DNA of 56,439 nt from a virus (IMGVR_UViG_3300022198_003329:1-56439), one strand, 5' to 3'. Numbered from the stretch's first letter, positions 54,330-56,326 are shown. The notes: generated by a model not told the origin, from the letters alone. Numbers and translations are program-made.

Positions 54330-54400
54330 AAAGAGCATTACCATATGGTTTGAAACGCTTTGTTGCTTCAAACCTTAAATGAGAAATCTCCTATTGGTTG
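54330..54400 (+). promoter_or_regulatory. Promoter module R1
   Basis: CCATATGG at 54341; flanking AAAG...CTTTG arms; hairpin GGTTTGAA/TTCAAACC; TTAAATGAGAAAT (TGAGAAAT 54380-54387); ending TTGGTTG. It drives the gene at 54441 with a ~40-base leader that includes a GAGGTG ribosome site. Confidence 0.65.
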
Positions 54401-54440
54401 GCTCAAAGGGAAGATTGGCCAAATACATGAGGTGAAACAA

Positions 54441-54968
54441 ATGAAAATAGAAAATTGGATTACGAATACAACTGCGGTTCGTGCTTGGATGAGCAACGAA
54501 TTGAAAGACGACGGGGTGCGAGCAACCCTAAGCGGTATCTTTGATATGGCTAACGAACAATCAAGTGAAGACTTCCTTTCTTCAATGTGGACTGCGGTTC
54601 GCAACATTGCAGGGCATCTTGATGGATTCCCAAAAGCCCGTGTTGGACAACCCTCCGTTTTGAGTCAAGAAGGTCAAGCCAATGTTGCGAATGTGGCCAG
54701 CCTAGTGCGTGGTGCATTTGCATCTATTGGTGAGAATCATGATATTCTCTTGAAGGTTATCCTACCACATGGCAGAACTGGTGGAGAATTTGAATCATGG
54801 TCAGCATACTGTGACCACATGGCTTCAACTGCTGAAAACAACATGCTTTCCGCAGTTAAGGAAAACCGATGGAATGCGGAAGAAGACATTTTGACCTGTC
54901 AAGCACCACTAACAAAGGCAGAGAAGGATGCTCTCAAAGAAGAAGGAGGCGTCACTCAAGAAGAGTGA
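54441..54968 (+). CDS. Hypothetical protein of module R1
   Basis: A 175-aa protein from ATG 54441 (GAGGTG upstream; longer frame to 54360 disregarded because it crosses the promoter module). It starts MKIENWITNTTAVRAWM, which matches the partial protein at 56374 (MKLSNWNTN...V...W). Helical, acidic C-terminus, relatively GC-rich codons. Paralogy with the last gene suggests a duplicated family under the same promoter. Function unknown; possibly early host-takeover. Confidence 0.7.
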   Translation: MKIENWITNTTAVRAWMSNELKDDGVRATLSGIFDMANEQSSEDFLSSMWTAVRNIAGHLDGFPKARVGQPSVLSQEGQANVANVASLVRGAFASIGENHDILLKVILPHGRTGGEFESWSAYCDHMASTAENNMLSAVKENRWNAEEDILTCQAPLTKAEKDALKEEGGVTQEE

Positions 54969-55004
54969 TGTTTTCTTCACCAAAACCGCCAATCTTCCCT
55001 TTGG

Positions 55005-55027
55005 CCACCCCTCCTCATGAGGGGTGG
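55005..55027 (+). terminator. Hairpin terminator after the R1 gene
   Basis: Perfect 9-bp stem CCACCCCTC (55005-55013) with GAGGGGTGG (55019-55027), 5-base loop, shortly after the stop at 54968. No T-run, so it may act with a factor. Confidence 0.55.
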
Positions 55028-55052
55028 TCGTCGGGGTCAAGTAAATGAACAC

Positions 55053-55122
55053 CAAAGTAAGTGCAACCATATGGTAGGTGACTTTGGAACATACCTCATA
55101 TTTGAGAAATTTACTCAAGGGT
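55053..55122 (+). promoter_or_regulatory. Promoter module R2
   Basis: CCATATGG at 55067; arms CAAAG...CTTTG; hairpin GGTA...TACC; CATATTTGAGAAAT (octamer 55103-55110). A TATA-like CATATTTG lies ~24 bases before ATG 55123, consistent with a leaderless transcript. Confidence 0.65.
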
Positions 55123-55341
55123 ATGAAACTTGATGTTTTGATTGAGGTGCTTGAAGATTTGAGATATTTGGAGAGGTTGAACTACGATGACTTCAAAGAC
55201 TTATTATTTCCCGACTCCGAATACCATTATGTGGATATGAAATGGGAACTATTTAGAGATAACAGATATCATTTTTTACAATTGAGTTCAAATGACAAAT
55301 TACAAATTTTAGTGGACTACATCAATAGAATAAAAGAATGA
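55123..55341 (+). CDS. Hypothetical 72-aa acidic protein (leaderless)
   Basis: ATG 55123, ~24 bases after the R2 TATA-like element and without a ribosome site. Helical and acidic, Leu/Asp/Tyr-rich (LEDLRYLERLNYDDFKDLL). First gene of a three-gene unit. No family recognised. Confidence 0.6.
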   Translation: MKLDVLIEVLEDLRYLERLNYDDFKDLLFPDSEYHYVDMKWELFRDNRYHFLQLSSNDKLQILVDYINRIKE

Positions 55342-55351
55342 AGGTGAGTTA

Positions 55352-55516
55352 ATGCCAATAGGAATATGTATAAAATGTGGTGAAGAACACGATTGCGATA
55401 CTGGGATTATGGGATTATTTCGTTTGAAGTGTTACGAATGTGAACGCATTGATGACGAATTATATGAAAAGGAATCAGCCGAGTTAGATAGATATGAAGA
55501 GGAGAGAGATAGATGA
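55352..55516 (+). CDS. 54-aa zinc-binding protein
   Basis: ATG 55352 preceded by AGGTGAG. Cys pairs ICIKCGE and KCYECER with His/Cys HDCD between, then an acidic helix. It overlaps the next gene by ATGA, as in the minus-strand array. Confidence 0.6.
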   Translation: MPIGICIKCGEEHDCDTGIMGLFRLKCYECERIDDELYEKESAELDRYEEERDR

Positions 55517-55632
55517 GATGGAATGTGCCTATCAAAGAAAGCCCCTTCAAGGTGTCAAAGTGTAAAGAATGCAATGAACAATATTTGGGATTGTATTATG
55601 ACACATGCACCGATTGTCGGCTTGGGATTTAA
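55513..55632 (+). CDS. 39-aa zinc-ribbon mini-protein
   Basis: ATG 55513 overlaps the preceding stop. Cys pairs KCKECNE and TCTDCRL with QYLGLYYD between form a ribbon. Ends just before the tandem terminator hairpins. Confidence 0.55.
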   Translation: MRWNVPIKESPFKVSKCKECNEQYLGLYYDTCTDCRLGI

Positions 55633-55643
55633 AGCAACCAAAA

Positions 55644-55673
55644 AAAAACTACGGTTTTTCCCTTCGGGGTTTT
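55644..55673 (+). terminator. Tandem hairpin terminator (R2 unit)
   Basis: AAAAAC-TACG-GTTTTT (55644-55659) followed at once by CCC-TTCG-GGG and TTTT. Two tetraloop hairpins in series end the R2 unit. Confidence 0.65.
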
Positions 55674-55678
55674 GAGCG

Positions 55679-55748
55679 CAAAGCGTCACACCATATGGTA
55701 ATGAACTTTGTGAAATTAACCCATAAATGAGAATTCTCCTCTTGGGTG
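55679..55748 (+). promoter_or_regulatory. Promoter module R3
   Basis: CCATATGG at 55691; symmetric CAAAG/CTTTG arms; variant octamer TGAGAATT 55728-55735; ending CTTGGGTG. It precedes a stretch with no convincing ORF, so it probably drives a non-coding RNA. Confidence 0.6.
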
Positions 55749-55952
55749 TAAGCAAGCAATACTAGTCAATGGCTTGCTGAAAAGAAACATCAATGCAACG
55801 GAAATATGCAGGGTATGGCGGTAGGCCGAACCATTGGGAACGAGTTGGAATTCCGAGTGTTCTCATGTAAGTGGTGGCTGTGAATCCCAAAAACTCCCGT
55901 AAGTCTCATGAAAGAAGGAAGGGCAGTCTGCTTGATGTATTCCCACTCACAA
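55749..55952 (+). ncRNA. Candidate small non-coding RNA of module R3
   Basis: About 200 bases between promoter module R3 and a strong terminator. No ORF longer than about 25 codons has a ribosome site here; the only ATG ORF (near 55792) is very short. A long stem AGCAAG/CTTGCT lies near the 5' end. GC content is above the genome average, as in structured RNAs. Its function is unknown. Confidence 0.45.
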
Positions 55953-56005
55953 GGGGGAGAATCCACCGCTACTTTGGATTCTCCCCCGCCCTACGGGGTT
56001 TTTTT
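55953..56005 (+). terminator. Strong hairpin terminator (R3 unit)
   Basis: 12-bp stem GGGGGAGAATCC/GGATTCTCCCCC (55953-55964 with 55976-55987) followed by CCC-TACG-GGG and a run of seven T (55999-56005). Confidence 0.8.
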
Positions 56006-56010
56006 GATAA

Positions 56011-56079
56011 CAAAGCATCACACCATATGGTTCTAACTTTGTGTTTAGAACCTTATGTTTGAGAAATTCAGCATTAGGC
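56011..56079 (+). promoter_or_regulatory. Promoter module R4
   Basis: CCATATGG at 56023; CAAAG/CTTTG arms; hairpin GGTTCTAA/TTAGAACC; TTTGAGAAAT (octamer 56060-56067). ATG 56080 lies ~23 bases after the TATA-like TTATGTTT, so again leaderless. Confidence 0.65.
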
Positions 56080-56217
56080 ATGTATAAGAATACATATGAT
56101 GCGAATTGCGAAGGTTGCGGAAACAATGTTGAAATTAGTCTCTATGGCTACATTGGGGAATTCAAGTATGTTTGGTGTGAAGAATGTGGCTATGAGGGCG
56201 AAAACAAAAATGAGTGA
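56080..56217 (+). CDS. 45-aa zinc-ribbon protein
   Basis: ATG 56080, leaderless after module R4. Cys pairs NCEGCGN and WCEECGY form a classical ribbon. Acidic/Asn-rich C-terminus. Similar in size and pattern to the ribbons in R2. Confidence 0.65.
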   Translation: MYKNTYDANCEGCGNNVEISLYGYIGEFKYVWCEECGYEGENKNE

Positions 56218-56227
56218 AATCATCAAA

Positions 56228-56255
56228 AAACCTTCGGGTTTCCCTTCGGGGTTTT
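56228..56255 (+). terminator. Tandem UUCG hairpin terminator (R4 unit)
   Basis: AAACC-TTCG-GGTTT then CCC-TTCG-GGG followed by TTTT; the same tandem layout as the R2 terminator. Confidence 0.7.
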
Positions 56256-56260
56256 AATAC

Positions 56261-56326
56261 CAAAGTAACACCATATGGTAATGCTTTGCACTTTCCTCAT
56301 TTATTTGAGAAAATGAGTCTTGGTTG
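56261..56326 (+). promoter_or_regulatory. Promoter module R5
   Basis: CCATATGG at 56271 with exact CAAAG/CTTTG arms (5-base spacing both sides); variant octamer TGAGAAAA 56306-56313; ending CTTGGTTG. A ~45-base leader with GGAG follows before ATG 56374, as in R1. Confidence 0.65.

What the first reader, a model, noticed from the sequence alone, without database searches (positions are those of the whole stretch)
54330..56326. Five copies of a conserved ~70-bp promoter module
Each copy has CAAAG-n-CCATATGG-n-CTTTG, a following hairpin whose arms change but stay complementary in R1 and R4 (GGTTTGAA/TTCAAACC, GGTTCTAA/TTAGAACC), TATA-like TTTGAGAAAT 35-39 bases after CCATATGG, and a start ~25 bases later (R2, R4) or a leader (R1, R5). 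Terminators lie between them. It looks like a dedicated viral promoter/operator family.
Basis: partly seen in the sequence, partly recalled or inferred. Interest (0 to 1): 0.85.

Follow-up and report, generated by a model that had tools for sequence, protein, structure and literature searches.

The report
Reshuffling gene-cassette array in archaeal virus
The repeated sequence looks like the junction mark between interchangeable gene cartridges that viruses of abundant ocean archaea have swapped, reshuffled and sometimes flipped, although none of the recombinase families tested turned up in these viruses.

Summary
The repeat is real: all five exact CCATATGG copies of the 56-kb window lie at 54341-56278. 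Across relatives it is not primarily a promoter module but a symmetric junction: GGTxxx-(CAAAG)-xxxACC·ATAT·GGTyyy-(CTTTG)-yyyACC, two back-to-back hairpins around a palindromic core. Arm base pairs covary one-to-one (z 16.5, 15.3, 10.9). Dozens of related viral contigs carry arrays of such sites, each separating mostly single-gene units (median 545 bp), between the replication and structural operons. One array end carries a compact half-site, CCATATGGCTTTG-n-AAATTTTTT. Homologous units have different neighbours in different viruses, and similarity breaks exactly in CCATATGG (240 block ends within 6 nt of a site in both genomes; 0 at random), with a median of 1 identical base beyond the core. 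A few units are inverted in place. This is a shuffling gene-cassette array in magrovirus-like viruses. Tyrosine, serine, HUH Y1 and IS110 recombinases were searched for and not found; the enzyme is unknown. A conserved LAGLIDADG-fold protein lacking the canonical catalytic acid is my candidate core binder (inference). No experiment shows recombination.

The parts
54341..54348 (.). site R1 core CCATATGG (first site of the array; no clear left hairpin, left element TAAAG)
54347..54374 (+). R1 right half-site hairpin GGTTTGAA-ACGCTTTGTTGC-TTCAAACC, start of cassette 1
   Evidence: z -3.5, 0 of 200 shuffles
54376..54388 (+). TATA-like element TTAAATGAGAAAT of cassette 1
   Evidence: sequence; position class as; inference
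54441..54968 (+). cassette 1 gene, 175 aa; member of a helical family found in cassettes of 101 loci
55053..55057 (+). R2 left element CAAAG (end of cassette 1)
55067..55074 (.). site R2 core CCATATGG
55073..55095 (+). R2 right half-site GGTA-GGTGACTTTGGAACA-TACC (weak stem)
55098..55112 (+). TATA-like element ATATTTGAGAAATTT of cassette 2
   Evidence: sequence; inference
55123..55341 (+). cassette 2 gene, 72 aa, start about 25 nt after the start of the TATA-like element (leaderless type)
55352..55516 (+). cassette 2 second ORF, 54 aa, zinc-ribbon-like CxxC pattern
   Evidence: sequence
55513..55632 (+). cassette 2 third ORF, 39 aa, CxxC pattern
   Evidence: sequence
55660..55673 (+). CCCTTCGGGGTTTT stem-loop, terminator-like
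55673..55688 (+). R3 left half-site hairpin TGA-G-CGC-AAA-GCG-TCA around CAAAG
55691..55698 (.). site R3 core CCATATGG
55697..55721 (+). R3 right half-site GGTAATGAACTTTGTGAAATTAACC (bulged stem, not better than shuffles)
   Evidence: sequence
55699..56022 (+). cassette 3, about 324 bp, no convincing gene (25-aa ORF at 55793-55870)
55984..55998 (+). terminator-like stem-loop followed by seven T
56011..56015 (+). R4 left element CAAAG
56023..56030 (.). site R4 core CCATATGG
56029..56052 (+). R4 right half-site hairpin GGTTCTAA-CTTTGTGT-TTAGAACC
   Evidence: z -4.9, 0 of 200 shuffles
56056..56068 (+). TATA-like element TGTTTGAGAAATT of cassette 4
   Evidence: sequence; inference
56080..56217 (+). 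cassette 4 gene, 45 aa, zinc-ribbon-like, leaderless type
56232..56251 (+). terminator-like stem-loop
56261..56265 (+). R5 left element CAAAG
56271..56278 (.). site R5 core CCATATGG
56284..56288 (+). R5 right element CTTTG (no stable right hairpin)
56365..56439 (+). start of cassette 5 gene (same 170-aa family; complete in L114); runs off the window
53269..53733 (-). fixed paralogue of the cassette family, next to the array on the replication side
36025..36450 (-). LAGLIDADG-fold protein without the canonical catalytic acid; candidate binder of the palindromic core
   Evidence: the link to the core is inference
23630..24325 (-). ERCC4/XPF-type structure-specific nuclease with HhH; candidate accessory nuclease
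   Evidence: the link is inference
45522..46325 (-). viral TFB (TFIIB-like) gene

Best explanation
The five copies are recombination-type junctions of a gene-cassette array in a magrovirus-like archaeal virus. Each cassette starts with GGTyyy-CTTTG-yyyACC followed by a TATA-like promoter, carries usually one small gene, and ends with GGTxxx-CAAAG-xxxACC. Neighbouring cassettes share one palindromic core, CCATATGG. Genomes have exchanged, reordered and occasionally inverted cassettes by joining ends within that core. Shown by comparison: the array, the site anatomy, the base-paired arms, breaks in the core, different neighbours, inversions. Inferred: that a protein recognises the folded arms and cuts or joins in the core, and that the compact end-site is a fixed platform end. 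The enzyme is not known; the LAGLIDADG-fold protein is my candidate core binder and the ERCC4-type nuclease a candidate accessory.
For: Arrays of 3-14 sites in more than 100 loci of many viral contigs. In array viruses almost all CCATATGG copies lie in the array. All 8 contigs over 73 kb picked by PolB have it; 7 of those 8 were already known array viruses. Arm covariation only on the diagonal: z 16.5/15.3/10.9/5.9/5.5; one half-site per locus z 9.5/8.2/7.3. Stem lengths on either side of CTTTG correlate, rho 0.53. Both gene-5' and gene-3' halves have it. Block ends within 6 nt of a site in both genomes: 240 of 1645, 0 at random; offsets peak at -4/+4. 224 comparisons in which a homologous cassette has an unrelated neighbour, 47 at 85% identity or more, junctions printed; identity beyond the core on the changed side median 1 nt, n=91. 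In-place inversion L057 4168-4882 versus L290; 6 of 176 oriented pairs opposite. End-form always terminal. Cassette genes lie on both strands (177/113).
Against: No recombinase was identified: PF00589 in 0 of 50 records, PF00239 in 0 of 25, PF01797 and PF01548 in 0 of 21. Nothing shows recombination in action; all evidence is comparative, and comparisons share genomes so are not independent. The empty site CAAAGCCATATGGCTTTG was found only in two unrelated contigs. Clear inversions are few. Only a minority of halves have exact 6-bp stems. No turnover was traced for the window's own cassettes.
Confidence: 0.77

Rival explanations
1. Promoter/operator family: the palindrome binds a viral regulator (possibly the LAGLIDADG-fold protein) and the adjacent TATA-like element drives each gene. 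Modules are exchanged only because ordinary homologous recombination uses these shared sequences as linkers.
For: A/T-rich peak 21-25 nt before start codons and CYATATA right after the 5' hairpin in many cassettes; viral TFB present; G.T exceeds A.C mismatches in the 5' half (16:0), hinting that the sense strand folds there.
Against: Identity at changed junctions is about 9-10 nt, short for homologous recombination. Hairpins also covary on the gene-3' side. Spacing to CTTTG varies 10 nt. End half-sites and cassettes without a gene are unexplained.
Confidence: 0.13
2. Structure-driven exchange without a dedicated recombinase: hairpins stall replication or are cut by the viral ERCC4-type nuclease, and ends are rejoined through the self-complementary core by template switching or annealing plus the viral DNA ligase.
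For: ERCC4 nuclease in 21 of 21 records; the virus codes its own PolB, clamp loader and ligase; the core is self-complementary; no known recombinase was found.
Against: Breaks are confined to one 8-bp sequence, and CTTTG/CAAAG and ACCYYA are conserved beyond what a hairpin needs, which points to sequence recognition.
Confidence: 0.2
3. A host tyrosine recombinase of the XerA type acts on the sites, as XerC/XerD do on pdif modules of Acinetobacter plasmids.
For: The viruses lack a recognisable integrase (ICTV profiles PMC10768690 and PMC12999244); Xer hijacking is known for plasmid modules (PMC11705084, PMC12907356).
Against: A Xer site has fixed arms and spacer, while here spacing varies and arms pair with themselves. 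The element is absent from 194 genomes of the order searched as host; the host dif site was not examined.
Confidence: 0.1
4. Each cassette end is an RNA structure, for example a leader or 3' hairpin, with function in transcripts only.
For: G.T over A.C bias on the inward-reading strand (47:5 pooled; 16:0 in 5' halves).
Against: The 5' hairpin lies upstream of the TATA-like element, so it is outside the predicted transcript. The element is dyad-symmetric and cassettes occur in both orientations. No Rfam match.
Confidence: 0.07

Closest known systems
Integrons (attC gene-cassette arrays)
   Same: Ordered arrays of mostly single-gene cassettes; sites with poorly conserved but self-complementary arms; one fixed array end; gene-less cassettes; reshuffled order.
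   Different: No tyrosine integrase; palindromic 8-bp core with hairpins at both cassette ends; cassettes carry their own TATA-like promoters; occasional inversion; located in viruses of archaea.
pdif/Xer modules of Acinetobacter plasmids
   Same: Gene modules bounded by recombination sites and moved without a recombinase of their own.
   Different: pdif sites are fixed 28-bp Xer sites with two arms and a spacer (own knowledge); here the element has variable spacing and hairpin arms.
IS200/IS605-type elements and palindrome-associated elements
   Same: Hairpins next to both element ends.
   Different: No Y1 transposase in 21 records; ordered tandem arrays at one genome position.
Phage N4 early promoters (hairpin promoters; own knowledge)
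   Same: Short hairpin with conserved loop letters close to the transcription start.
   Different: Here hairpins are at both gene ends and breaks of gene order fall in the core; an ordinary TATA-like element follows.
LAGLIDADG homing endonucleases (I-TnaI, I-Vdi141I, I-OnuI)
   Same: Fold of the conserved viral 141-aa protein (Foldseek E about 1e-8); single-motif members act as homodimers on near-palindromic DNA (own knowledge).
   Different: Catalytic acid of the LAGLIDADG motif absent in every member read; not in an intron; fixed in the replication operon.

Membership tests
Integron | Integron integrase (tyrosine recombinase, PF00589) | tested here: not met
   0 of 50 array-virus records, control positive in 14 of 14 genomes
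Integron | Array of gene cassettes bounded by structured, self-complementary sites | tested here: met
Integron | Promoterless cassettes expressed from a platform promoter | tested here: inconclusive
   TATA-like element between hairpin and start in many cassettes suggests own promoters; transcription was not measured
Integron | attC/attI consensus with crossover at GTT/AAC | tested here: not met
   breaks fall in CCATATGG
pdif/Xer module | Site of fixed arm-spacer-arm length | tested here: not met
   GGT to CTTTG spacing 2-12 nt
pdif/Xer module | Recombined by the host Xer enzyme | not tested
   host XerA and dif were not examined
IS200/IS605 | Y1 transposase (PF01797) | tested here: not met
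   0 of 21 records
Serine recombinase / IS110 invertible systems | PF00239 or PF01548 protein | tested here: not met
   0 of 25 and 0 of 21 records
LAGLIDADG homing endonuclease (window 36025-36450) | LAGLIDADG fold | tested here: met
   AlphaFold2 pLDDT 86.6; Foldseek I-TnaI TM 0.79, E 1.7e-8
LAGLIDADG homing endonuclease (window 36025-36450) | Catalytic acid at the end of the motif | tested here: not met
   replaced in all 43 sequences aligned
Archaeal TATA promoter | TATA box about 25 nt before the transcription start | tested here: inconclusive
   A/T peak 21-25 nt before starts; start sites not mapped
Magrovirales (Aoguangviridae-like) | PolB in two pieces, PCNA, RFC, TFB, ligase, GroEL-type chaperonin, HMG-CoA lyase; replication and structural genes divergent; no integrase | tested here: met
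   Pfam hits for both PolB pieces, TFB, Cpn60, HMGL and UvrD; PCNA, RFC and ligase read from the ORF translations; profile in PMC10768690. No named magrovirus record could be compared

The most novel reading that the evidence does not exclude
A cassette-recombination system of its own kind: double-hairpin sites around a palindromic 4- to 8-bp core, run by a viral enzyme that belongs to no known recombinase family (for example a repurposed LAGLIDADG-fold core binder with a structure-specific nuclease), giving ocean archaeal viruses an integron-like gene library.
Probability: 0.4. Interest if true: 0.93.

Novelty: new variant of a known kind. Interest (0 to 1): 0.82.

Why it matters
Integron-like gene shuffling is a main route of rapid adaptation in bacteria; finding a different, apparently integrase-free version in viruses of some of the most abundant ocean archaea would mean that cassette arrays arose more than once. 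It gives a concrete marker (CCATATGG arrays) to collect the fast-evolving accessory genes of these viruses, which are probable anti-host genes, and sets a clear open question: which enzyme joins the ends.

Tried and rejected
An empty platform CAAAGCCATATGGCTTTG was predicted from the array ends; the only two contigs with it are unrelated, so no empty platform was seen. Searches for tyrosine, serine, Y1 and IS110 recombinases found none. The 170-aa cassette family was considered as the recombinase: a confident all-helical model without any PDB match and without invariant residues, so unlikely an enzyme; no PADLOC hit for the window protein, one stray PglZ hit among 70 members, and no PHROG. The conserved 380-aa gene downstream of the array end was considered as an integrase; its alignment showed no such motif but a C-terminal W-x-x-x-L-W tag, and it was not folded. 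Rfam has no match. Host genomes lack the element (the order is that of a Euryarchaeota MAG, taken to be the host order). The two-array 184.7-kb record was checked for variation within one virus: it is two viruses about 70% identical joined in one record, so uninformative. Single-genome hits in genome contigs are mostly lone matches, as expected by chance. Assembly error as the cause of reshuffling was judged unlikely: the shared sequence is shorter than a read and identical arrays recur in different samples (L057/L299, L267/L285).

Full report
What is in the window. The window is part of a magrovirus-like archaeal virus: a PolB in two pieces, TFB, Cpn60, HMG-CoA lyase, SF1 helicase and ERCC4-type nuclease by Pfam, with PCNA, RFC and ligase read from the ORF translations. 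This matches the ICTV description of Aoguangviridae, which also states that no integrase or transposase is identifiable and that the replication and structural genes run in opposite directions (PMC10768690; Apasviridae likewise, PMC12999244). L114 (77.5 kb) is nearly identical to the window and continues past its end. The five CCATATGG copies are the only exact ones in the window; L114 adds a sixth site and then a compact end-site CCATATGGCTTTG.

The element is larger and symmetric. In about 500 non-redundant sites from relatives, each half reads GGTyyy ... CTTTG ... yyyACCYYA outward from the core. CTTTG lies within 20 nt of the core in 680 of 923 halves (24 expected) and ACCYYA in 398 (30 expected). 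The arms vary but pair: Watson-Crick pairing at the first three arm positions is 73, 57 and 53 percent against 36, 26 and 30 in shuffles. Only the matching positions are enriched, not shifted ones; z is 16.5, 15.3, 10.9, 5.9 and 5.5, and 9.5, 8.2 and 7.3 for the first three with one half-site per locus. Stem lengths before and after CTTTG correlate (rho 0.53). Halves at gene starts and at gene ends both show it (59 exact against 8.0 expected, and 32 against 5.7). In the window itself only R1 and R4 have strong right-hand hairpins.

The element bounds cassettes. Sites recur every 300-1000 bp (median 545); most intervals hold one ORF, on either strand (177 and 113), and some hold none. Arrays lie between the replication and structural operons; beyond the compact end lie structural genes. 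About 75 end-sites have the other sites on one side, with 0 or 1 on the far side. Counting CCATATGG in whole virus records shows it nearly confined to the arrays. Among PolB-selected contigs, all eight over 73 kb have an array, although seven of them were already in my array set. None of 194 genomes of the order searched as host have the element.

Cassettes have moved. Nucleotide blocks shared between arrays end at a site: 240 of 1645 block ends are within 6 nt of a site centre in both genomes, against none for random positions, with peaks exactly at the first and last base of CCATATGG. In 224 comparisons (47 at 85 percent identity or more) a homologous cassette has an unrelated neighbour, and printed junctions change exactly at CCAT/ATGG. 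In 91 of these at 80 percent identity or more the identity beyond the core on the changed side is a median of one base. One cassette is inverted in place between L057 and L290 while both neighbours stay collinear; among arrays oriented by their end-site 6 of 176 homologous pairs are opposite. These comparisons share genomes and are not independent counts of events.

Promoters. Each cassette start has the hairpin, then a C/T-rich TATA-like element (CYATATA), then either a start codon about 25 nt on or a leader with a ribosome-binding site. In the window this element takes the form TGAGAA(A/T). G.T mismatches outnumber A.C mismatches in arms of gene-5' halves (16 to 0; pooled 47 to 5), which hints that the sense strand folds there; gene-3' halves are too few to tell (5 to 3).

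How it may work. Variable arms that keep their pairing, a variable distance from core to CTTTG, and breaks limited to an 8-bp palindrome fit recognition of folded ends and joining in the core. A self-complementary core explains why cassettes can join in either orientation. The enzyme is missing from every recombinase family that I tested. A 141-aa protein present in 45 of 50 array-virus records, nearly always once, folds like homodimeric LAGLIDADG endonucleases, whose targets are near-palindromes, but lacks the canonical catalytic acid in all 43 sequences read. I propose it as a core-binding protein; this is inference. An ERCC4-type nuclease is present in 21 of 21 records tested and could act on hairpins.

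Cargo. A family of about 170 aa recurs in cassettes of 101 loci, up to four per locus, with a fixed paralogue beside the array at window 53269-53733. Its model is confident (pLDDT 89.6), all helical and without a PDB match. Other cassettes of the window code small zinc-ribbon-like proteins. I take these to be accessory, perhaps anti-host, genes; that is a guess.

Known or new. I found no description of these arrays: Xu et al. 2023 on magroviruses contains none of the words repeat, palindrome, recombination, cassette, hairpin or integrase, and searches for related terms gave nothing fitting. Main magrovirus papers (Philosof 2017 and Prabhu 2025) are not held and Zhou 2023 was not read, so prior mention cannot be excluded. 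Against the defining features of integrons, pdif modules and IS200/IS605, at least one tested feature fails for each, so I do not file it under any; it works most like an integron cassette array.

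Noticed in passing
window 54404-54419 and 54988-55003: A perfect 16-nt inverted repeat joins the leader and the 3' flank of the cassette 1 gene.
   Followed up: no
window 53852-54170: A/T-rich divergent region before the array with repeated TGAGAAATGAGAAAT and a 27-nt inverted repeat (53937-53963 / 54047-54073); possible origin or divergent control region.
   Followed up: no
L250, L261, L296, L330 and others, structural side of the array end: Many small unrelated proteins share a short tag with tryptophan and leucine at the N or C end (MSWRDIIK, SWIEMLWA); possibly a virion-targeting tag.
   Followed up: partly
L383-L386 (record G050, 184.7 kb): One record holds two viruses about 70 percent identical end to end, each with its own array.
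   Followed up: yes
L092, L103, L082: Dense arrays with sites every 80-300 bp and no genes between many of them.
   Followed up: no
L061, L268, L284, L300 next to the end-site: A recurrent gene-less cassette of about 200 bp sits beside the compact array end.
   Followed up: no
window 43659-44856: Adjacent JAB-like and ThiF-like genes, suggesting a ubiquitin-like conjugation or removal pair.
   Followed up: no
window 50321-50395: tRNA-Arg (TCT) gene.
   Followed up: no
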